NCBI RefSeq assembly: GCF_036370855.1
Contig: NC_088105.1
Location: forward strand, 14,265,619 to 14,329,618
From: Dromaius novaehollandiae
Taxonomy: Eukaryota; Chordata; Aves; Casuariiformes; Dromaiidae
Reading direction: 5' to 3'
DNA: 64,000 nt
The translations under genes and the position numbers were made by a program. The stretch's first letter is position 1, and each line of letters begins with the position of its first letter. The notes under the pieces are model-generated. The model saw only the letters and a program-made list of their open reading frames with translations, had not been told where the DNA came from and searched no databases. This document shows positions 9,513-55,275 of this stretch, in pieces.

Positions 9513-9587
9513 CTTGAAGATCAGTCAGAAAAAGAAATTTGACCTTACCTGTGACAGTCAGACAGTGGGACAAAAAATGCCAGTGAA
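9513..9587 (+). CDS. RGS21: RGS21 exon with ancestral start codon (coding part 9577-9587)
   Basis: ATG CCA GTG AA at 9577-9587 runs directly into a consensus donor (gtgagt at 9588), encoding M-P-V-K with the lysine codon split in phase 2. This matches the human N-terminus MPVK and the phase of the next exon. The left edge at 9513 is inferred from a pyrimidine-rich acceptor ending in ttcag at 9512; the 64 nt before the ATG would be 5' UTR. The start context has A at -3 and C at +4. With only eleven coding bases, the call rests on splice phase and position. Confidence 0.7.
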
Positions 9588-12500
9588 GTGAGTTGTTGCT
9601 TATGCGCCTCTCAGTCTGAGGACACTAATGGGATGGGATGGTCAACTTTCCATTAATCTCGACAGCTTTTATTTTCCTTCCCACTTTATAGTATATATGC
9701 CGATTTTGATAACTTGCCATCAATTCTGCTTGCTATTCAAGTGAATCCAACAAGGTCAGTGAGATCGTTCTCTGAATGATTCAAATAATATTACTCATGA
9801 GGAAGATGAGCAGGATTAGGTCCATGCTTGTCTCATTCTGGTCCTCACTCACTGGACAAGAAAGCTGTTCGATATCCACTGAACAACTCATAAATTTGTT
9901 ATAAATTTAATTAAAGTTTACTGAAGTTACTAAGACAAACTGTCCCCTGGTTAATTCCATCAGCTCGTAATGTGTCACGAAATACTATGTAATGCTATAT
10001 TTAGTTTTCATTCATGTTTTCAATATATATATAATATATTTACACTCCAATTTTACTCATGTATGTGCATATATATGTGTAAATATGCATAATTTTATTC
10101 ATTTCATTTAAACATCATTTTGTGCAGTAAACAAGCAAACTGGCAGCTACAAAAAATAATGCTTGCCTTTTCAGAGTGTCAATGCAATAATCTTATAGCA
10201 ATGCTTATAAATATAACTGCAGTTAAATATTTGTGTTGACGCTATCACATAAACTCTTGATGAATTCACAATTACAGAGGACCATTACTGCTGAATCTTG
10301 CAAATGTCTGTGGGACAAAGCTCTCAGACTACCCTAGGCACTTCAGAGAAGGGCTTTGACAGTATGGCTCTCTGAGTCCCCTTAGGGACATCAAATACTT
10401 TTACAGAATTCTAGGGGCTTTTTTTGTAAGTTAAAAAAAACTTTAATATTTTATATAGACCAAAGCTTTTGGCCCATTTGTCAGACCCCAGAGCCTTTTA
10501 GCCTTTTTAAGCTAGCAGCAGAAATTTTTACGCAGGTCAATAGCTGGCATAAAGGTCCTTCCTTAAATGACTGCAGAAACATCTTGGTCACGCAAAAGCA
10601 TTGTGAACTTCACGTCAAAGGTTACTTTAACATGCTCTCCCGGCCAATGGGTATCTGGTGAGCAGCGGGAATACGTTATAACCCCAGTTCAGGGAACAGC
10701 ACACTGTCTGTGGCTTACCCATGCTTTGCAGAACCAATAATCATCTCCCCTGTTTTCAGTTGGGACCAGTTACTGTCTTCACTAAGGGCCATGAACATAA
10801 GGCCTAAGCATGAGTTTGAAAGGAATTACACTCCCTAAACTTGCATGTTTGAAACCAGTAAGACCAACTCAGGAAACTTTTCAGTATAAAATGACTAAGT
10901 TCCACACAAATTAATTTGTGAGGTTTTTTGATTGGAAACAGGATTCTATACATTCTAAGCAGAAAGTGCCATAGAAATTAATGGTTAATCCATCCAAACT
11001 TGAGAAGAAATTCAGTACACACGCCAGAACACTAATATCCATCCTGTGCTTTTATTATAGTTCAGCCAATTGCAAAACTTGCGTACGTACATAGGGTAAC
11101 ACAAGTGACTCGTCCTGCTCCCTCAGCAAGATAGCTAACTTTCCAAATAATAGAATAGCCGTGATAGACTGCACCGGCAAAAGATCACAATGCTATTTTC
11201 AAGGACAGGTGTTGTTTCTACAGGTGAGCCACTAGGGAAACTATGGCCTGGTTCGAGTCTGTGGATACGCTACTGGCCAATAAAGGTAAGAAGTATGTTA
11301 AAAAAATATTTTAAGCAGCATTCATCAACACTGTGCACAAACACTGATGCCAGGTTTTCACACTGCTTTCCAGTGCAACTCACCACATGCTTCGAACTAC
11401 ATCAGCTCCATTGCTAGAAGCATTTGAGCTGGTGCACTGAAAGCTGGTGGGGGCATGTTTCTTCAAGCTGCAAGCACAATATGCCTTCCAACCAAAGTTT
11501 AAGGGACTTTCCAAAAGGCAGAATTGATACAAAAGAAGTTTCATTTTATGAAGATAATAGTTGTTAAACTCAGTGCAATGTATTCTGTCTTTCCTATTTT
11601 TTAAATGATGCATTTAGCAGCTGTACTATTTGCTTTTCAACAGAGTACTGCTGTCTTCAAATACCATTGAAACAACAAAAGAGTCTAACACAAATCGAAC
11701 TTGAGCGCTGATCTTGAATTTACACAGTTTATCAAGATGATTCCTGTGGTGATAATTAAGCAAGTAGAATGGGAATAACTGAACAAGTTCGATGCTTTAG
11801 GGGAGTAGATTCTGATGAGCTTATTTTTGCTATTCACGTTATAGCTAACCCATTTCACTAACGTAAGTGTAAAAAAGAAAACAAAACCCTTCTTAGATAT
11901 TCCCACTATAAAGAAATATGCACATACTGTGCATTGATTTTCAGTAAAACAAAGAGTGATTATTTCTAAAAATTCCCAGGTCATTTCTCGAAGAGATCTC
12001 ATTCTCACTGACCTTAAACCCCAAACCATGCGGAGCTGTTCCAAATTTCCTTGCACCTGCACCATTTTCCTGCTGGCACTTTGCAGCCTGGACCCTGGGG
12101 TGCCTCCCCATTGTTTCGGAGTAGTAATGACCTAACAAACACAGCTAATTTTGGGTGCTGTCACCTTTCTCTTCTAGGAGGTTGTGATGTGGATTCGTTC
12201 TAAAACAGCTTCTTCCAAAACAGCCTCTGTCTCATTTTTCTCTTAAAGCACACAAAATGCTGAACAAAGTATCAAAGAGTTCATCTTTTCATTGAAAATG
12301 TAATCATTAATTGAAAGCAAGTGTGAGCGCTATTTAGCCCAGCTACCCTTATCTCTGGGAGAAGCGTGCTACTTTACCACAGCATGACTTAATTGTGAGG
12401 GTATGGCTTAGAGACGTCAGCCTCAAATCACTGATTGCCTCATGACTTCAAATCCTTTTATAGACCAAAAACTCTAAGCTCCCCATTTGGACTAGTCTAC

Positions 12501-14103
12501 CAGTGCTACAAAGACCTATGCCAGGCAGGTATGAGGAGCGTTCCTTAGTTACTGACTCGCTGAAAGAATTCCCTTGGCCACCTTATCATTGCTTCCGTTT
12601 CATCTGCTATTTAATTGCCCCACAACAACCTTTTAGGATGAACTCCTGCCTGACAGACAGAACAGTAACAGGCAGATAAATGGCTGCATATATGATACTT
12701 TTACAAATAATCTGCATGGACCTTCTGGTTGTCCTCCCCCCATCACCTGGCCTGTTCCTTTCCAGACGGCTTGGCAGCTTTTAGGACATTTCTCAAGTCC
12801 GAGTTCAGCGAGGAGAACATCGAGTTCTGGCTGGCCTGCGAGGACTTCAAGAAAACCAAGTCCTCTACTAAGATTGCCTCAAAAGCCCAAAAGATTTATT
12901 CTGACTTCATACAAGCTGACGCTCCCAAGGAGGTAAATAGTTTGGTATGTACTTTGGGTACTCACCGCGGATGGGAATTGAGCGGGAAGTTCAGAACCAA
13001 ACTCCTTCGAATGACCAAAAATACAGTTCACCATGGCTTTTCTTCCATTTTCACATCCGCTCTTTGCCGGGGAGAAAGCCGTGGGGAGCTCTGTGAAGCA
13101 AAGACACCTTATGGTTAACTAGTAGTTCAGATGCATTCTTCCCCTAGGGCATAGGCTTAGCTCACAGTCTGAAACTGCTGCCTTAACATCTAAGGAAACC
13201 TGTGTTCAGTATAATTTGTTTTCACTGACTACTTTACGGCACAATAAGCACCATTTCCTCTATATTATAGGCACTGGTATTTCGGAATGTTAATGATTAT
13301 TTATGCATTTTCTTTTGTACAGGTATTTTTGACATGATGAATATTAAAGCAGCAACTTGCAAATATTTGTCACCACAGTCAGTTTGATGACTATGTAAAG
13401 ATTGCTTTCTGTGAAGGAACAGATTTGCTAATTAATTATCAGAGGTGTGCTCACAACAAGCTTTTACACTGATGGTTGATAGTGACTGCAATTTGAATGT
13501 CCACATGTCCTATAGATGATCCAAACCCATTTTATTATTATGAAAACCAAAAAATCCTTGCAGAATTAATTGTGTCAAATCCTAAAAAGATGCTAAATAC
13601 CTACATACTTAATTAATTCTTCTGTAATCAGTACTTCATAAGATTTGGCTTGGAAAAAAAGATGAGATAAGCAGAGACAGGTTCTCCCTCCCCACCTTCT
13701 TTTAGTGACATGATTTCTTTAAGATTAGAGAGCCCAATTAAATTAAGAATTCAGTATACTAGAAAAGGCAGCCACGAATTTCCTGCTAATTTGCATCAGC
13801 CAGGGCATTTTGAGAGGGAATTCAAATGCTGACCGTCATGTACACAAACAGCTTTCCAATCAAGCTGAAATTCATTTCATGCCTCCTTCTCACCTACAGA
13901 TAAACATTGACTTTCACACCAGAAACCACATCTCTCGGAACATCTCAGAGCCCACCCTCAGCTGCTTTGACGACGCGCAGAGGTTAATCTATAGCCTCAT
14001 GGCAAAGGACTCCTTCCCCAGGTTCCTCAGGTCAGAAGAGTATAAGGAGCTAGTAAATAAGCAGCAGGATGGAAACCAGAAGAGATGGCTCCCGTTTCTG
14101 TGA
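9577..14103 (+). CDS. RGS21: RGS21, regulator of G-protein signalling 21 (spliced; TGA at codon 10 of the ancestral frame)
   Basis: Small R4-family GTPase-activating protein that speeds GTP hydrolysis on Gi/Gq-class alpha subunits in the cytosol and at the plasma membrane; in mammals it is reported in taste cells. Coding exons are 9577-9587, 11209-11285, 12766-12932 and 13900-14103 with phases 2, 1 and 0. They join to 152 codons plus stop, the same length as human RGS21 as I recall it. The start MPVK CCFYR, the [12 protein letters not shown] helix and the C-terminus KRWLPFL identify the gene. The RGS box is residues 31-147. The contact residues corresponding to RGS4 N88, N128, L159, D163 and R167 are N47, N87, L118, D122 and R126, all present. 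The oddity is codon 10: TGA (11225-11227) where the human protein has Ser, probably TCA. Translation may instead begin at Met16 (11243), giving 137 residues with the whole RGS box. The intact box argues against an old pseudogene; a polymorphism, recent nonsense change, assembly error or alternative first exon remain possible. Confidence 0.88.
9588..11208 (+). other. RGS21: RGS21 intron between first and second coding exons
   Basis: Begins gtgagt and ends ggacag, with a weak pyrimidine tract. Contains an AT-alternating stretch near 10022-10090. No repeats or genes were recognised. Confidence 0.65.
11209..11285 (+). CDS. RGS21: RGS21 second coding exon, carries the in-frame TGA
   Basis: 77 bp, phase 2 in and phase 1 out; donor gtaaga at 11286. 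Translated in phase it gives (K)CCFYR, stop, [19 protein letters not shown]. Human RGS21 reads CCFYR-S-PTAETMTW and then ends DTLLANQ, so the homology continues on both sides of the stop. The TGA is at 11225-11227. The Met16 codon at 11243-11245 has A at -3 and G at +4 (actATGg). Cys5 and Cys6 would be lost if translation starts at Met16. The TGA also lies inside CAGGTGAGC, a good consensus splice donor, preceded by tttctacag, which resembles an acceptor. Confidence 0.9.
11225..11227 (+). other. RGS21: premature in-frame TGA, RGS21 codon 10
   Basis: Stop codon seen directly in the reconstructed frame between AGG (Arg9) and GCC (residue 11). The human protein has Ser here; a Ser TCA codon would need one base change to become TGA. 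Using the other acceptor-like sites at 11223 or 11227 after the MPVK exon does not restore an open frame. Confidence 0.85.
11286..12765 (+). other. RGS21: RGS21 intron between second and third coding exons
   Basis: Begins gtaaga and ends in a strong acceptor (gttcctttccag). The ORFs inside are short and unlike any RGS sequence; no transposon was recognised. Confidence 0.8.
12766..12932 (+). CDS. RGS21: RGS21 third coding exon, N-terminal half of RGS box
   Basis: 167 bp, phase 1 in and phase 0 out; donor gtaaat at 12933. Encodes residues 30-85, including the R4 hallmark [17 protein letters not shown] and ending ADAPKE. Asn47 of SEEN is the first Galpha-contact residue. Nucleotides 12789-12863 are unusually GC-rich at third positions and nearly identical to the matching block of RGS1. 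Confidence 0.97.
12933..13899 (+). other. RGS21: RGS21 intron between third and fourth coding exons
   Basis: Bounded by gtaaat and a strong acceptor (ccttctcacctacag). Nothing else was recognised. Confidence 0.85.
13900..14103 (+). CDS. RGS21: RGS21 last coding exon, C-terminal half of RGS box and stop
   Basis: 204 bp, 67 codons plus TGA at 14101-14103. Opens with INIDF (contact Asn87) and contains the CFDDAQ helix, then [11 protein letters not shown] carrying Leu118, Asp122 and Arg126. The tail KRWLPFL separates RGS21 from RGS1, RGS8, RGS13 and RGS16. No frameshift or stop is present. Confidence 0.97.
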   Translation: MNIDFHTRNHISRNISEPTLSCFDDAQRLIYSLMAKDSFPRFLRSEEYKELVNKQQDGNQKRWLPFL

Positions 14104-35214: not shown

Positions 35215-36145
35215 TCGGGAATAAAAGAAGACAGTTTTTCTCTCTCTTTCCCTTATATAAAATACACAGCTATATAAATCATTGTCAACAGCTAACCAGA
35301 ACTCCACATTTAATAAATTCCATTAATCCTTTATGGCTATCCAGGAATTACTGGCCCTCCTTCAGCTCTCTAGGGCTGAAACTAGCTCCAGTTATTCCCA
35401 TACCTTGAGGGCCCAGGACTACGTGCAACCGGCTCCTGAGAGGGGGGAACGAAGGCACAACAGCGTTGCACGCCCATGCTCATGCATGCAAGCGTGCTAA
35501 CAGCCATAGCTACCGCCATGCCTGATAGTAACAGATCAAAGTCTCTGTCCCAGGTTTTATGACAACAGAGACAGCCAAATGGAGCAGATTTACGTCTTCT
35601 CTCGTGGATGTTTGTAACATCCTTGTGCTAACGCTTTGAGCTAAAACTACGTGACCATACCAGCGTAGCAAAGAGCTTAACAAAAAAAGCACATCTCTGC
35701 AGCTGCACAGGCTTCTGGAATCTGTTACTGTCTACGCGCACTTTGTGGGCTCATCCTCTGTAACCAGGGAAGCTTATTAATTCAGTGGGTTGCACAGAGG
35801 GTGTCATTCTGCCTTTCCTCTACATAATATCTTCCAAATGCTTTCCTGTTCTAAATGGGGACAAACGACATTTTCTGACGTCCTCTGTGGTGGCGCCTGC
35901 ACAGCTCACCCTTGGCACATGGCTTAGATAACAACCCCTGTTAAGATAACAATGTTTGTAAGGTGTTTGCCCAAAATTGACCACGTTAAAGAGGAAAATG
36001 ACCATCAGCCAGGTTGAACAGTGACCAGGGACTTACAAAAACACTTCTGAAACAGATAAGGAGTCAGCCTGAAGAGAAATAAGAAAATTTGCCATTGGGA
36101 GGAAAAGACCTTGGAGTGAAAACAGCAGCAGTCAAAACCTGACTG

Positions 36146-36303
36146 CACGCTGGCAGAAGTCGCCCCACTGGCATCGCGCCTCTGCCTCGGCCGGGCAGAG
36201 CATCCTCCCCGCCGGGCGCCGCGAGCAGCCTGCATCCAGCTAGGGGAGCCGCCGCGCAGGGCGCAGCAGCGGGGACCCGCCTGGGCGAGCGTGTGTGGCC
36301 CCG
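36146..36303. promoter_or_regulatory. CpG-island-like cluster in intergenic DNA
   Basis: About twenty CpG dinucleotides in roughly 160 bases, far denser than the surrounding AT-rich desert. A TATAAAG lies just to the right at 36360-36366 on the + strand. ORFs across it on the - strand (up to 169 codons) look like a by-product of GC content, since they match no family I recognise. It could be the promoter of a non-coding transcript, an enhancer or a transposon remnant. Confidence 0.45.
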
Positions 36304-36379
36304 TGGTGGCTTTCTCACTGGTGGGGGATCCGCAGGTTGTAGGGAGCAGCACGGACACATATAAAGCTGGGGCACCTTC

Positions 36380-39300
36380 AGGTCCAACAGGAGATGGGTG
36401 TAAATACGGGAACCTGCACTCCCGGAGGGGAGGTGTGCCTGTAGTGCACAAGCCCACATCATTAGTGGAATTTAAAAAACAAACAAAAAAAGAAAAAAGA
36501 GAGAGAGACACCATTATTCTGCCTTTTTCCAGAATAACTAATAGGAAACACAGCTAGGGTATGAAAAAAAACAGCAAGCAGGGGCATGAGAATGAACCTC
36601 GCACAGCTCTGTGGTGAGCCTTAAGTGAGAGGCTGTTGACTGGGCTGGGTCTTTTACCGTTAACCAGAAAATTTCTCTCAACTTAAAAATTACTTTGAGA
36701 ATAAATTCCTGGGAAATATTTTGTTTTTTATTAACATTTCTAATGAAAAACTACACTGAAAAATTCCAAGGCAGTTTACTAAGAATGATGAACAAGCTTT
36801 CTAATGTGACTCTAGCAGAGACACAGACTTCTTATGGCCCATGGCCAAGTGACTTCCCCTTATATGCTTTTGAAATAAGATCAGTACTTCTCACTGTAGG
36901 GGTAAGCTCTTAGAAGTTGCTAATATGTATTTACGTATTTCTAGAGCATCTTAAAATTCTGTGAATGCTACATAAAACGTCTTCATCTACCTGCTGCAAA
37001 ATATGCTATAACAAGCTGGCAACTAAGCAGAGATCCCAGCAAAGGCTGTCAGGTTCATTTCTGTGGAAGAAAGTAGAGGATGAGGATGTGAATCAACAAA
37101 AGACTGCCATGCACATGCTCTGTATAAAATAAATGGTAGATTTTTGGAACTGGAATAAAGTTTATTCTAAAGAATCTTGTTATTGGTTTTGTCCTGTATT
37201 CCAAGTATTCCCTCCCTACCACAGCTTCTTGGCTATCATAACAGTGAAAAGAATCAGTTACCTTTTGAAAAAGGCTGATAAATATTGCATAGACACAGGA
37301 AAACCACTTATTCTGAAGTGGTTTCCTTCTGCCAACCCCTAGGGATAACAGCTGCAGATGTTCAAGTGCCCACAACTGCCTCAGGTGTTTTTGAGAACAG
37401 AGCACCATGCCCCACATCACATGAAAGGGGAGAGAGATGAATGCCTGACAGCTTTGGTATTAACTCTGGAAGAAATAGCTTTGCACAGGCTGAATTTTCT
37501 GTATCGCTGCTGGAGCCAAAATCTGGTAATAAGCAGACGTCACCACCGCCCTCAAAAAAAATGAGAGGTTTGAAACTATGAACCATTATTCACTTCTAAA
37601 ATCTCACAGCGTGCATCCTCAGAATGCTTGGCAAGCCACGCACCGAGGACAGCACTGGACTTGGACTTGGCTATTTTCATGGGAAGCTTCTGCGAACATG
37701 AGGAACTTCCAAGCTAAATTCTGCTGTCAAGTTAAGGGAGAAAATCAACTGGTCGATAGCTTCTTCCTCCTCTCCCTGAAGACCACTGACCTGAGAAAAG
37801 ACAGGTTTTGGCCTCTCATTCTGCAGCACAGCTGCAAGTTATAAGCCAAGAAGTGTCTTCTCACCCTTTCCTCCCTTTATTTTTCCTTTCTTACCCGCTC
37901 ATTTGTTTGTTTCAGTCACCTGTTACCGTTACCTCACAGCCCATAAGCCTTCTGCACACTCATCGTTTTAAAGTGTGACTGCAGTACTAGCACGAGGGAA
38001 GGGCTGAGCTGAACGGGCTCTTCAGGACGCCCGGCACAGCTGCTTCAGAGAAAGAACAGGACGAGAAGCAAGTGTTGATGATCGTATGGGAAAAAGTCCA
38101 GATAAGCTACTGGTCCAGGTCCAGTTTCATAACATTTTTTTCTTTCAGACATTTATGTTATTTACTTGTCTTAGTGTTAGCCCTCACCACTTTATTTCTT
38201 GAAAATGCAAGAAGCATATACAGCACTGTGTTAGGTCTTGTGGTTGTCTGTCTTCAGAGAAGAAAGCCCTAAAGAGATTATCTCAGATTTCATATCTTCT
38301 TACCTTTTTTTTTTTTTTTAATGAATACAAGGTAAAACACAAGTTAGGCAAAAAGGAAACAGGTGTGAGCAAGAGCCAGTGAAAGCAAGAAAGTAAAATT
38401 CACAGAAATGACATTTGCAGACTTAGTAAATATACTCAAAACACGTCCGGTCTTGAACTGAGCCTGTCACCTGGTATATCAGGTAAACGTCATCCTCATT
38501 CAGTAGTATAATCAGACACTTTGTAAACTGCATGTTCCATGTGTTGTAATATTTTGAGGTCTGTGATAATCCTTTGGCTTCTGTGATCATATTTTTCCAG
38601 TTGTTTTGTTCTATAACTGGCAACCATGTGCATCCCTGAGCTTTGTTATATCACAGTTCCCTAATATTTAGAGTGTTCCATAGCAACACACAGCAAGATT
38701 AAATTAGATGACAAGCGAAAGTATTATTGGTTACTCAATGAACGTAAGAGGAATCAAAAGGAAAAGTGCTGGCTTGTAAAAACACAAATCTCAGTGCAAT
38801 AGGAGGGAAAAAACCTGCTGAGGATAATATGCAAACAGTATTCTGAACTTCACACGATGCAAGCATTAGGTCTCTCCGCTTGCTCTTTTATTATGACCTG
38901 ACTTGGATTTTTAGGGGTTGATCTGCATGAAAGATGAGAATAGAGTAAGAACATATTCAATATTCTTTGGTTTGTTCTACCTTCCTTTCACTCTGCTCTG
39001 CTTACACCATCCTTGAGGGCCAAAATTAGAGTGGCCATATCAAGCAAAATATCAGACTATGTTATTTCTTCTGCAGCAGTGATAAGATATCTCCCTTTTG
39101 TTATTTTCAAGGTAACAATGTTTATTATACTTTGAGGGGGAATCTGCCATATTCAATACACTAAGCAAAAGGTAGCCAAGTAAATCACACAGTAAGAAAG
39201 CTCTTCTCATGCGAAAGAATCCATGAAGTAAAAAATTTTCACAATCAGTAATCGGCTTAAAAATAAGCAGTATGACATGCCATTTTGTTAGAGGGAAAAA

Positions 39301-42701: not shown

Positions 42702-44560
42702 AAATAGGATCATAGGATAATTTAGGGGGGAAGGGAACTCAGGAGATCTCCAGTACAACCCTACTCCACTACTTCACTGTCCTTGAGGGAAAAAAAGATT
42801 TTCCATATATCCAGCCTGAACTGCTTGTGTCTATTTGTGCCCATTACCTCACATCCTCCCATCACACATCGCTGTGCAGGGCCTGGCTCCATCTTCTTGA
42901 TAACGTCCCCAGAGGTACCGGGGGGCTGCTGTGAGGTCCCCTCAGAGCATTACCTCCCGCAGACAGAACAAGTCCCCAGCCCTCTCCTCACGGAGCCTTC
43001 GCTCCAGCTCCTGACCATCTTGGTGGCCCCTCCGCTGAGCGCACTCCAGTTTGACAGCACACTGGGAGGCCCAAAACTGGATGGAGTATTCTCGATGTGG
43101 TCTAAGGAGGGCTGAGTAGAGGGAGATAATCACTTCCCTCATCCTACTGGCTGTGCTCCTGTTCATACGGCCCAGGGTGCTGTCCACCACCCTTGCTGCC
43201 AGGACACACTGCTGGCCCCTGCTCAGCTTGCTGAGCTGCTCCTTAGCCAGCCAGTCCCCATCCTGTACTGTTGCACAGGGTTACTCCTTCCCAGTACAGG
43301 AAGTTTCCTACCCTTTCTCCCAGCCTATCTAGGTCCCTCTGGATGTCAGTTCTGCCCTTGAGCCTGCCTACTGGGCTCCCCAGTGTGCTGCCACTGGAAA
43401 ACTTGATGGCAGCATACTCCTTTGTCCCCCTCTAGGTTACTGAAAGATGTAAAACAGGAACGACCTCTGCAGTGCTCCCCTTCTTACTGCTCTCCAAGTA
43501 GGCTGCGACCCATTAACCACTGCCCTCTGAGCCTGACCAACCAGCTTTTTAACCAGATGGTTTTCATCCATCCAGATTGAAATGTCCTAACTGGATATAA
43601 GAATATTGTGGGATACAGTATCAAAAGCCTTGATAAAGTGACAGTAAATGACATCCACTACTCTCCACTCATCCACAAATACAGTCATTTTATTACAAAA
43701 GGTAACCAGGTGGGCCAGACATGATTTACTCTTGGTCAATCCCATGCTGACTGAGCCCAGTCATCTTCTCCTTCACGAACCCAGAAATGTGTTCCCAGAG
43801 GACTTGCTATGTGGTTTTACTAGAGGTCACAGTCAGGCTGTCCAGCCTGTAGTTTCCCAGGTTTTTGCTCTTGTTTGAAGATGGCTTCTATGTTTGCCTT
43901 CCTCCAGTCATTGGGGACCTCCCCAGATCTCCATGGCTTTTCAAAGATGATAGTGAGCAGCAGGCAAGTTCTGACAGCACCCCTGAATACAGCCCATCTC
44001 ATCAAGTTCACTCAGGTCATCTCTGACTCAATCCTCACCCACTGCTGGTTGTTCTCATCCTCCTTGAAACCTGCCTCAAAACACAGATGCCTGGCAGACC
44101 TTACCGATAAGCACTGAGTACCTCAGCGTTACGTTTGCTGTCATGAAATCACTCTTCCCATTCAGCAGCCATCCCACATTTTCCTTTTTAGCCTTCTACT
44201 ACTAATGTAGTGGTAGAAGATCATCTTGTTGCCCTTGATGTCCCTTGCAAGTCTCAATTCTAGCTGAGTTTTGGCTTTCCTCCTAAAGGCGTCCCTACAC
44301 ACCTGGTCACTCCTTCTAAATTCCTCCTTTGTAGCCTGTCCCTTCCCTCCACCCACCGTATACTGCCTTTTCAGATCAGAGCTGTCGTGCTGCCTGCTGA
44401 GCCAAGCCAGTCTCCCGCTACGTCTGCTCGTTTTCCTGAGGGTCGGGAGGAATAGTTCTTGCACTGAGCGGCTTCCAGTAGCATAAGACCACCTTTGGAT
44501 GAATCCATCCCCCTCAGCATTTTTATTGTCAGAGTAAAAGCTGCACTGCATGTGATAATT
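42702..44560 (-). mobile_element. CR1 LINE, 5'-truncated, inactivated, on the minus strand
   Basis: The left end resembles the CR1 3' terminus in reverse complement (atcataggataatt, then gaagggaactcaggagatctccagtacaac). Minus-strand reading frames show CR1 ORF2 pieces in the expected order. At 44162-44551 there is a linker region with AWLSR, QLELRLARDIKGNK and the YISS motif. At 43820-44011 the start of the reverse transcriptase appears (IIFEKPWRSGEVPNDWRKAN). RT-derived sequence continues through 43400-43800. At 42942-43190 is the C-terminal end (LYSALLRPHREYSIQFWA). Frames are interrupted by stops and shifts, so the copy cannot move itself. The endonuclease and 5' parts are missing, the usual LINE truncation. 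CR1 is the main retroposon of birds. The edges are approximate. Confidence 0.93.
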
Positions 44561-44564
44561 CAGC

Positions 44565-52303: not shown

Positions 52304-52407
52304 ATGCCAGGATTATTTTTTCCCCACAACAACATGACTGAATTGAATGGAAAAGACGACTGCAAGCTTTCAGAAGGCAAAATCCATAAAAAGAAGCAAA
52401 AGGCTTT
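52304..52407 (+). CDS. RGS1: RGS1 coding exon 1
   Basis: ATG at 52304 and donor gtaagt at 52408; encodes residues 1-34 plus two bases of Phe35. Contains the basic stretch KKKQK and a second in-frame ATG at codon 11. Confidence 0.93.
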
Positions 52408-55275
52408 GTAAGTATATACATCTTGGTATAAATTCTAAGTTTTTAGAAGCGAAACTAACGTTAGAAACTTGGAGATTATGAATTAGGGCCATTTTTCAAG
52501 CTAACTCAGTGCAAAACCTGTTTCAAGTCTAGGACTATACCACCATTAAAAATGGCTTGAGCTGATGCAGACCAATGAACCGATTCTCTAAACTAAGCAG
52601 AAAAAGAATTTGGATAAACTAGGAGCCTCTTAGTCTTTTGAGAGCAATTACTTTGATATCTAACTTCCCAAACATCAGTCATAGGATGGAGCTGTTCGCT
52701 TCTGTTTAAAAGTTTTAAGAAGTTTATGAAGAATTGAAAGGCAATTGCAATTTTAATGCATTACAAATGTCTATTCATTGGTTTCAGTGGTGCAGATCTC
52801 AAAAACTATTTGAAGTGCATGGTACCACATCTTGAATCCGGAATCAAGTCTTCTAACTCCAGAAATGTTATGTAAGTACTGAGATACAGTAAACTATAAT
52901 AAAAAAATTAACTATAGCTAGATTACTATATGGCAAAACTATTGCATTTATTTTTTATTAGTTTCTAAACTACTTCTAGAACAACAAATTACTTCTAATA
53001 TCATCATAATGTCAGTTTCCAAAATAGAAAAGAGGTAAATGTTAGGAAGGAGAAGCTATTCATGGAGTTGAAAGTTATTTCTTAGCAATACATACATGCT
53101 TGTGTGAAATGATGGGGGAAGACGACTCCTCAGTTATATCTGTTCCCTTCAGAGGCATAGTGTATCCATCTCTAACGTTTTAGAAGAAATGATGCATTAC
53201 ACTTAGTGAAGTGCAGTGATATTTCCATGCATATTTCAGGAATATGGAAACATTAGTACAGACAGACACAAAATGATTTGGTCATAGTTACACTAAAAGC
53301 TCACCCTTCTGGAAACAGAATTCAGGATAACCCCCTAGATTCCTCCATTTCCCATCTCCAATTATTTTTCCTCAACACATGCTTACTCTCAGGGTCTCAG
53401 TTCTGTCTGAGTCAGCCATAAGCTTAACAAATATCTGGTACATGCTCCTAGAATAGAATAATAAAGTGTAACACTTGCCTCCTATAAGTACGTACATGTG
53501 GTCTCTTGCCTAAAGTCTTTTTCTTTTCTTGTCAACTTAGGCTTTCTGCAGAAGAAGTAATGCAGTGGTCCCAGTCTTTGGAAAAGCTCTTGGCCAGCCA
53601 AAGTAAGTATATTACTTCTTTCTTATGAGAATGAAATTTTATGTAAACTGGTCAAAAATATGAAGCTGTAGCATTCTACAAACACTGCCAAAGAAGGGCC
53701 AGTTGCATTTCAGTTATTCACAGCTCCAGTGTAACATGGCTAGGGTAGTCAGCTTTGTTTCCAGGTCTTCCCCCCACCACCACCATTTTCCACTCCCAAT
53801 ATAGAAAACAACAACAACAACAAAAAGCCTAAAAAAGCTTAATTCGGTGGTGTTTGATCAGACTTCTGTTCTTACATAAGACTTCTCCGTTTAATTTGGA
53901 ATTGTGTATGCAACTATGTAAAAAGACAGTCCATTTAGAGAAGACTAGAATCCATTAACGTACTTTAGTATCCCGGGTCTAGTTCTAAAAACCACTGAGC
54001 ATCAATAGGAAGACTCCATGACTCCATTGCCCTTGAAATTAGAATATTTGCAGGATGTTGAAGAAGGGAAGTATGGTGTATTTTGTCAAGATTTTATAGC
54101 AGATTTCAACAGAACTTCTGCTATAAGCTGTTTATTTTATTCTCCCTGGTCGCAACTGTCATGCTATAAATGGTGACGTATTTGTGTTGGCTGTAGGTGG
54201 CCAACGTATCTTTCGGGAGTTCCTGAAGTCCGAGTTCAGCGAGGAGAACATTGAGTTCTGGTTGGCCTGCGAGGATTACAAGAAAACCAAGTCCGATCGC
54301 TTACATGGCAAAGCGGAGAGGATTTATGAGGAATTTGTTCAGTCAGATGCTATTAAACAGGTAATTACAAAATTAATCTGTGCAGTGTTATAGTAAAAGG
54401 ATTCTGGAAAAAACAGAAGAGGTGAATGGAGATTCACTGAGATGCATTTACATTCATTCAGTTACATAGGAAGACGACGTGTTTGCATGTTTTTATGAGC
54501 TGACTTGACACGTTGTCGTCTTCAGCTGTGAGATCATCAGATCTCACAAGTACAGTCGCACAGCACAGGCCAGTGCTGAGAGCAACACCAGCAGCAGCTC
54601 AGCAGCTGCCCCAGCGGGCTCAGCACATGACACTGGTCTGAGTCAGCCCCGTTTGAATTACTGGTGGTGTCTGGAGTCAGGTGCTTAGAGAAAGTTTTGC
54701 TGGTAGAAGAGCTGTGGATTTTCTCTTCTCCTTTAAAATGTGGAGGCACTTTGGGGAATTGAAACTGTTGTATTTTGATCGTCTTTCAAACTTGAGTTTT
54801 CCATTCTACACGAAGTTTCTCCTTTTTAATTGGAGGGGTTTTTTTACTTGCTCTGTTGTTTAATCTTATTACCTCTGATTTTATAAGAAAATGCATTTAT
54901 ATATTGAGTAGCAATTTTTGTGCGTAACTGGAACGTAAACTTTTAAGTCCCCTTGTTTTGCAGTTCCCATATTGAATTATCATACTGAGTTCTAAGACTG
55001 GGAATTTATTTACTGACAAGACAAAATAGTAAATACAGAAAAAGGAAGTAAATTTAAGATATCAATGATGTTTGTTTTTCTCCTCCTAGATCAATATTGA
55101 TTATCGTACAAGGGAAGCAACGGCCAAAAGGGCACAAGACCCAACTCACACAAGTTTTGATGAAGCCCAAAAAACAGTGTATATCCTCATGGAAAGGGAT
55201 TCATATCCCAGATTTTTGAAATCCAAAGCCTACTTGAACCTTTTAAACCAGCTGCAGATCAACAGTTCGAAATGA
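52304..55275 (+). CDS. RGS1: RGS1, regulator of G-protein signalling 1 (complete, five exons)
   Basis: GTPase-activating protein for Gi/Gq alpha subunits that damps chemokine-receptor signalling in activated lymphocytes. Exons 52304-52407, 52788-52871, 53541-53602, 54197-54360 and 55090-55275 join in phases 2, 2, 1 and 0 into 199 codons plus TGA. Human isoforms are 196 and 209 residues as I recall. The start MPGLFF corresponds to the shorter human form MPGMFF; no ATG in frame precedes it before the upstream stop at 52208-52210. A basic cluster lies at residues 29-33, and a probable amphipathic helix near 38-56 ([16 protein letters not shown]) is typical of R4 membrane targeting. [16 protein letters not shown] precedes the RGS box (84-195). 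Contact residues N101, N140, L171, D175 and R179 are all present. Compared with RGS21, the box is one codon shorter after KKTKS. All splice sites are canonical and nothing suggests loss of function. Confidence 0.97.
52408..52787 (+). other. RGS1: RGS1 intron 1
   Basis: 380 bases from gtaagt to ttggtttcag. Nothing else recognised. Confidence 0.9.
52788..52871 (+). CDS. RGS1: RGS1 coding exon 2
   Basis: 84 bases, phase 2 in and out, donor gtaagt at 52872. Encodes [20 protein letters not shown] and following residues, matching the human segment GMDMKAYLRSMIPHLESGMK. Confidence 0.95.
52872..53540 (+). other. RGS1: RGS1 intron 2
   Basis: 669 bases, acceptor tgtcaacttag. No repeat or exon recognised. 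Confidence 0.9.
53541..53602 (+). CDS. RGS1: RGS1 coding exon 3
   Basis: 62 bases, phase 2 in and 1 out, donor gtaagt at 53603. Encodes [20 protein letters not shown], nearly identical to human [20 protein letters not shown]. Confidence 0.97.
53603..54196 (+). other. RGS1: RGS1 intron 3
   Basis: 594 bases ending tgttggctgtag. Contains a short CAA repeat at about 53807-53823. Confidence 0.9.
53807..53823. repeat. (CAA)n microsatellite
   Basis: Short run of CAA units inside RGS1 intron 3. Confidence 0.8.
54197..54360 (+). CDS. RGS1: RGS1 coding exon 4, N-terminal half of RGS box
   Basis: 164 bases, phase 1 in and 0 out, donor gtaatt at 54361. Encodes GQRIF, then [20 protein letters not shown], ending DAIKQ; Asn101 is the contact residue. 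The first two thirds (54220-54294) share 69 of 75 bases with RGS21. Confidence 0.98.
54361..55089 (+). other. RGS1: RGS1 intron 4
   Basis: 729 bases ending in a pyrimidine-rich acceptor (tttttctcctcctag). Nothing else recognised. Confidence 0.9.
55090..55275 (+). CDS. RGS1: RGS1 coding exon 5 and stop
   Basis: 61 codons plus TGA at 55273-55275. Opens INIDYRTRE with Asn140 and contains FDEAQK and [11 protein letters not shown] with Leu171, Asp175 and Arg179. It ends [11 protein letters not shown], close to human LLNDLQANSLK. Confidence 0.98.
   Translation: MNIDYRTREATAKRAQDPTHTSFDEAQKTVYILMERDSYPRFLKSKAYLNLLNQLQINSSK

What the first reader, a model, noticed from the sequence alone, without database searches (positions are those of the whole stretch)
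11225..11227. RGS21 reading frame broken by a single in-frame TGA at codon 10
Joining the four coding exons by splice phase gives exactly 152 codons, the human length, with clear homology on both sides of codon 10 (CCFYR before, ETM-W and DTLLAN after). Codon 10, serine in the human protein, is TGA here. Everything downstream, including all five Galpha-contact residues, is intact. This suggests a recent nonsense change, a switch to a shorter protein, or an alternative 5' exon. RGS21 is linked to taste signalling in mammals and birds have reduced taste receptor sets, so N-terminal loss in this lineage would be of interest.
Basis: partly seen in the sequence, partly recalled or inferred. Interest (0 to 1): 0.75.

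Follow-up and report, generated by a model that had tools for sequence, protein, structure and literature searches.

The report
Early stop in a taste-signalling gene
The gene RGS21 in this probably avian genome has a stop codon near its start, but its whole working domain is intact and could still be made from a second start codon just downstream, so this looks more like a trimmed front end than a dead gene.

Summary
Observation confirmed. Four exons join in phase to 152 codons plus the stop, and TGA at 11225-11227 (codon 10) is the only internal in-frame stop. The neighbouring RGS1 gene is fully open and serves as a control.

The TGA is the first whole codon of a 62-nt unit that matches an RGS1 exon in length and phase. 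Of the three frames through it, only the TGA-bearing one leads into the RGS domain, so no transcript entering at or upstream of 11224 avoids the stop. Two routes to the domain remain. Met16 (11243), 15 nt after the TGA with A at -3 and G at +4, opens a 137-aa protein covering the whole Pfam RGS profile. Or exon 1 could splice to an AG at 11236, giving an in-frame 143-aa protein without the TGA; that site is weak.

Best reading: a start-proximal nonsense allele leaving an N-terminally trimmed RGS21. Gene loss, a polymorphism or a base error remain possible. No other bird could be compared, so age and fixation are unknown. Taste loss is not supported: chicken RGS21 is enriched in gustatory epithelium.

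The parts
9577..9587 (+). RGS21 coding exon 1: ATG CCA GTG AA, codons MPVK, phase-2 donor GAA|GTGAGT
   Evidence: join and phase; donor 4.0 bits; MPVK identical to human RGS21 as recalled
11209..11223 (+). 15-nt 5' extension of exon 2, GTGTTGTTTCTACAG, read in phase as CCFY and most of R; also the T-rich tract and AG of the second acceptor
   Evidence: acceptor at 11209 scores -2.1 bits, acceptor at 11224 scores 0.9 bits
11224..11285 (+). 62-nt R4-type exon unit, same length and phase as RGS1 exon 53541-53602; 35 of 62 bases identical ungapped
11225..11227 (+). in-frame TGA, codon 10
   Evidence: only in-frame stop among codons 1-152
11221..11229 (+). donor-like CAG|GTGAGC across codon 10; 8.3 bits, against 4.0, 6.2 and 3.1 for the gene's three donors
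   Evidence: weight matrix from recalled vertebrate frequencies; C or T as middle base of codon 10 gives 4.4 or 3.8 bits, A gives 7.9
11234..11236 (+). possible bypass acceptor: CACTAG|G, exon starting at 11236; exon 1 joined here is in frame and skips the TGA (MPVKETMAW..., 143 aa)
   Evidence: weak, -2.8 bits
11243..11245 (+). Met16, proposed start; context GAAACTATGGCC (A at -3, G at +4), 15 nt after the TGA
12766..12932 (+). RGS21 exon 3, 167 nt, RGS domain
13900..14103 (+). RGS21 exon 4 coding part with stop TGA 14101-14103
52304..55275 (+). RGS1, five coding exons, 199 aa, open: control for assembly quality and exon homology
   Evidence: the final stop was read

Best explanation
This is RGS21 carrying a start-proximal nonsense codon. 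The mRNA still carries the ancestral ATG, which now opens a 9-codon ORF (MPVKCCFYR) ending at the TGA. Ribosomes reach Met16, 15 nt further on and in a strong context, by leaky scanning or reinitiation, or directly if transcripts begin after exon 1. They make a 137-aa protein with the whole RGS domain but without residues 1-15, including Cys5-Cys6. Shown: the TGA, the open frame from Met16, the complete domain, and that a frame entering at or upstream of 11224 cannot reach the domain without the TGA. Inferred: that the TGA is a true homozygous base, that Met16 is used, and that the trimmed protein still acts as a GTPase activator with altered membrane targeting or stability.
For: Single in-frame stop and otherwise perfect four-exon structure. 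Pfam RGS profile 1-117 of 117 covered by residues 6-121 of the Met16 product. Best solved relatives align from residue 2 on (RGS2 2v4z, E 2e-51; RGS8 2ode, 8.8e-48). Met16 context A-3/G+4. Codons 16-152: 104 of 137 identical to recalled human RGS21 without indels, and GC3 0.68 in a window of 40% GC. Control gene RGS1 open. AUG-proximal stops can escape decay and allow reinitiation in globin mRNAs (PMC4513866, abstract seen). Chicken RGS21 transcript enriched in gustatory epithelium (PMC5567234, passage and section 16 seen).
Against: No transcript, read or second bird seen. Reinitiation only 15 nt after a stop is usually inefficient (general knowledge), and the first ATG has A at -3, so leaky scanning would be partial. 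uORF reinitiation does not fully protect from decay (title and abstract start of PMC10187673 in the listing). The trimmed protein loses the stretch that RGS1 keeps as LSAEEV before MQW. The donor-like site could divert splicing to a frame-shifted message. A weak acceptor at 11236 offers a rival open product that needs no new start.
Confidence: 0.47

Rival explanations
1. Loss-of-function allele: the TGA, helped by the donor-like site made by the same bases, abolishes or strongly lowers RGS21 protein. The gene is in early decay in this lineage or this individual.
For: Stop at codon 10 of 152. The donor-like CAG|GTGAGC is stronger than the gene's three donors (8.3 bits, 99.9th percentile of 2998 GT sites). 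If that donor were used, the 15-nt exon would shift the frame and lose Met16 (my reading of the sequence).
Against: No second lesion in the 142 codons after the stop and all splice borders GT/AG, so decay, if any, is young. A 15-nt exon is unlikely to be recognised well (general knowledge). Of 62 single changes elsewhere in the frame that would create a stop, only 6 fall in codons 1-15 (codon 10 left out of the count), so this stop lies in the part where it does least harm.
Confidence: 0.25
2. Heterozygous or rare allele, or a base error in the assembly; the species has a sense codon 10.
For: One base is enough: eight of the nine one-step neighbours of TGA are sense codons, TCA (Ser) among them (one search lists the eight). 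No other in-frame stop or frameshift is seen in the gene.
Against: No homopolymer at the site and no tandem array there. A chance false stop in this CDS is about 0.2% at an assumed QV40. RGS1 nearby is open, though one gene is a small control.
Confidence: 0.16
3. Splicing or recoding bypasses the TGA. The one workable route seen is exon 1 joined to the AG at 11236, which drops 27 nt with the TGA and gives an in-frame 143-aa protein MPVKETMAW... with the whole domain.
For: Of ten AG sites from 11127 to 11258 joined to exon 1, only 11236 gives an open frame to WLPFL. Its score, -2.8 bits, is close to the -2.1 of 11209, the acceptor of the human-like join. Acceptors 11209, 11224 and 11236 all keep the same phase.
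Against: 11236 follows AGs at 11208, 11223 and 11228, has no pyrimidine tract of its own, and stands at the 76th percentile of all AG sites. The other two frames of the 62-nt unit do not lead to the domain. No Rfam match at gathering threshold in the window, so no SECIS was found. The strongest acceptor-like AG near by is 11127 (4.4 bits); joined to exon 1 it gives a stop at codon 40 out of the RGS frame.
Confidence: 0.12

Closest known systems
Mammalian RGS21 (R4 family regulator of G protein signalling of taste cells)
   Same: Codon count, MPVKCCFYR start, complete RGS domain and C-terminus; 116 of 152 residues identical to the human protein as recalled, codon 10 counted as a mismatch
   Different: Stop at codon 10, so the human-like N-terminus cannot join the domain in one polypeptide
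RGS1 (same window, 52304-55275)
   Same: 62-nt exon of identical length and phase, with Met and Trp at the same columns (V-M-Q-W and T-M-A-W), followed by the RGS exons
   Different: RGS1 has Leu (CTT) where RGS21 has TGA, and a long N-terminus
AUG-proximal nonsense mutations with reinitiation (globin mRNAs, PMC4513866, abstract seen)
   Same: Short first ORF, stop near the start, in-frame downstream AUG
   Different: Shown there by experiment; here only the geometry is seen

Membership tests
RGS21 orthologue | RGS domain of R4 type | tested here: met
   Pfam RGS full length, E 7.5e-41; best solved relatives are RGS2, RGS8, RGS5 and RGS18, R4 members by recall. No RGS21 chain is among the 38 sequences listed
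RGS21 orthologue | Position next to RGS1 in the RGS cluster (order recalled from human 1q31) | tested here: met
   RGS1 on the same strand about 38 kb downstream
RGS21 orthologue | Short MPVKCCFYR N-terminus joined in frame to the domain | tested here: not met
   Encoded, but cut off from the domain by the TGA
RGS21 orthologue | Taste-cell expression | not testable with these tools
   No RNA from this species; chicken RGS21 is enriched in gustatory epithelium
Unitary pseudogene | Several disabling changes | tested here: not met
   One stop only, no frameshift, all splice borders GT/AG
Unitary pseudogene | Relaxed constraint on the coding sequence | not tested
   Needs relatives; none could be fetched
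Start-proximal nonsense with downstream initiation | In-frame downstream AUG in good context preserving the domain | tested here: met
   Met16, A-3/G+4, full domain
Start-proximal nonsense with downstream initiation | Protein made from the downstream AUG | not testable with these tools
   Needs ribosome profiling or N-terminal peptides
Selenoprotein or recoded UGA | SECIS element in the 3' UTR | tested here: not met
   No Rfam match at gathering threshold in the window; that Rfam holds SECIS models is recalled, and a weak element could be missed

The most novel reading that the evidence does not exclude
A bird lineage has fixed the TGA and runs RGS21 from Met16. The old start has become a 9-codon upstream ORF that throttles translation, and the protein has lost its Cys-Cys N-terminus, giving a cytosolic, possibly shorter-lived brake on taste G proteins. 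In addition, the RGS21-specific CCFYR peptide arose when the T-rich acceptor tract of the common 62-nt R4 exon became coding through a second acceptor 15 nt upstream.
Probability: 0.2. Interest if true: 0.55.

Novelty: new variant of a known kind. Interest (0 to 1): 0.3.

Why it matters
If fixed in a lineage, it is a natural test of what the short N-terminus of RGS21 does, in a gene whose mouse deletion lowers taste responses against expectation (PMC9329783, passage seen). It also warns that conservation around a stop can come from splice-site constraint as well as from coding constraint. If it is a single-individual allele or a base error, it is ordinary.

Tried and rejected
So there is no dating, no dN/dS and no test of a shared TGA. 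The own-genome search did not complete (6 of 6 tries), so a second copy of the gene could not be looked for.

Alternative 5' exon entering at or upstream of 11224: rejected by reading all three frames of the 62-nt unit. I therefore moved bypass from 0.05 to 0.12, the best reading from 0.50 to 0.47, loss from 0.28 to 0.25, and allele or error from 0.17 to 0.16. Selenocysteine: no Rfam match.

Papers: 'RGS21' alone (65 papers, 40 listed), 'RGS21 + chicken' (3), 'RGS21 + birds' (3), 'RGS21/pseudogene/stop codon/taste' (best 8 of 332) and a chicken-taste search listed nothing whose title or abstract start speaks of a broken bird RGS21; bodies were not read beyond the passages cited. An N-terminus/palmitoylation search (10 of 2,561 listed) gave no RGS21 paper. 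A CR1 search (5 of 12 listed) was used for background only. PMC12554172 was a false lead: its 'RGS21' hits are RGS2 residues 1-22. PMC7572916 (passages) states that no RGS21 structure had been reported.

Bird identity: frames at 42942-43280 and 44162-44563 (minus strand) look to me like CR1 pieces by recall, but Pfam found no family for any of the 5 ORFs sent (of 28 listed), and none of 10 CR1 3'-end words occurs in the window.

Full report
What is there. The plus strand holds RGS21 in four coding exons (9577-9587, 11209-11285, 12766-12932, 13900-14103). All introns have GT/AG borders, the phases match, and the joined frame has 152 codons plus a final TGA (end position). One in-frame stop breaks it: TGA at 11225-11227, codon 10. 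Human serine at codon 10 is recall, not a database result.

Controls. RGS1 lies about 38 kb downstream on the same strand. One of four tried border combinations joins its five exons to an open 199-aa frame. At assumed qualities of QV30, QV40 and QV50 a false stop somewhere in the RGS21 frame has a chance of 2%, 0.2% and 0.02%. The true quality is unknown, and one neighbouring gene is a small control.

Anatomy of the break. RGS1 has a 62-nt exon (53541-53602) that starts in phase 2 and encodes [20 protein letters not shown]. Bases 11224-11285 of RGS21 form the same unit: 62 nt, phase 2, 35 of 62 bases identical without gaps, Met and Trp in the same columns, and an AG just before it. The TGA is the first whole codon of this unit, where RGS1 has Leu. 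RGS21 as recalled from mammals also has CCFYR upstream; here that is 15 nt added through a weaker acceptor at 11209 (-2.1 bits, against 0.9 for 11224 and 7.4 and 7.9 for the two later acceptors). The CCFYR codons thus coincide with the T-rich tract of the 11224 acceptor (8 of 12 pyrimidines, against 6 of 12 for 11209 and 9 of 12 for RGS1). Their conservation can therefore come from splicing as well as from coding. That 62-nt exons are general in the R4 family is recall; only RGS1 was tested. Against a simple two-acceptor picture, the strongest acceptor-like AG of 11100-11300 is neither of these but 11127 (4.4 bits); joined to exon 1 it is out of the RGS frame and stops at codon 40.

Consequence. 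Of the three frames through the 62-nt unit, the one that leads into the RGS domain starts with the TGA; another has TAG; the third is open but out of frame with the domain. So no transcript entering at 11224 or upstream delivers an open frame from an upstream start to the domain. Two routes remain. (a) Start after the TGA: the first AUG is Met16 at 11243, 15 nt further on, with A at -3 and G at +4, and there is no in-frame CTG, GTG or ACG between (codons listed). The product has 137 residues, and residues 6-121 match the Pfam RGS profile from 1 to 117 of 117. Solved RGS2 and RGS8 chains align from its second residue. (b) Splice past the TGA: of ten AG sites from 11127 to 11258 joined to exon 1, only 11236 is open to the end, giving MPVKETMAW..., 143 aa. 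Its score, -2.8 bits (76th percentile of AG sites), is not far below that of 11209 (80th), but it follows nearer AGs and has no tract of its own. An exon skip was not modelled.

A second effect of the same base. With G in the middle of codon 10, the sequence CAG|GTGAGC scores 8.3 bits as a donor, above the gene's three donors (4.0, 6.2, 3.1) and in the 99.9th percentile of 2998 GT sites. With C or T it would score 4.4 or 3.8, with A 7.9 (weights recalled). Use of this donor would leave a 15-nt exon, shift the frame and lose Met16. This is the main route by which the change could be a true loss.

How it most likely works. The old AUG now opens a 9-codon ORF. Some ribosomes would reach Met16 by leaky scanning or reinitiation. 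In globin mRNAs, stops near the AUG can escape decay and allow reinitiation (PMC4513866, abstract), but protection is not complete (PMC10187673, listing only). I give 0.47 to a trimmed, still active RGS21 from Met16, 0.25 to loss, 0.16 to polymorphism or error, and 0.12 to bypass of the TGA. These odds were shifted. Loss of Cys5-Cys6 as loss of lipid anchoring is inference; no paper on this was found.

Taste. In chicken, RGS21 is among 43 genes more highly expressed in gustatory epithelium than in both neighbouring tissues, with GNAT3, TAS1R3, TRPM5 and GNG13 (PMC5567234, section 16). A review states that mouse RGS21 deletion lowers taste responses (PMC9329783, passage). So a role for avian RGS21 in taste tissue is plausible, and nothing here shows that taste was lost.

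Limits. No vertebrate relatives could be fetched, and the own-genome search did not complete. Age, fixation and selection therefore remain open.

Noticed in passing
window 11209-11236: Three acceptor-like AGs in the same phase (exon starts 11209, 11224, 11236); the RGS21-specific CCFYR peptide coincides with the T-rich tract of the acceptor that matches the R4-type 62-nt exon.
   Followed up: partly
window 11127: Strongest acceptor-like AG of 11100-11300 (4.4 bits), upstream of the human-like exon 2 start; could serve a 5' UTR exon.
   Followed up: partly
window 52304-55275: RGS1, five coding exons, 199 aa, open; its fourth exon has 164 nt where RGS21 exon 3 has 167 nt (one codon fewer).
   Followed up: partly
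window 42942-43280 and 44162-44563, minus strand: Open frames that look like pieces of a CR1-type LINE by recall; no Pfam match at E 0.1.
   Followed up: partly
window 36005-36557: Stretch with long overlapping open frames on both strands (182 aa and 135 aa minus, 145 aa plus); the 182-aa frame has no Pfam match, the other two were not sent.
   Followed up: no
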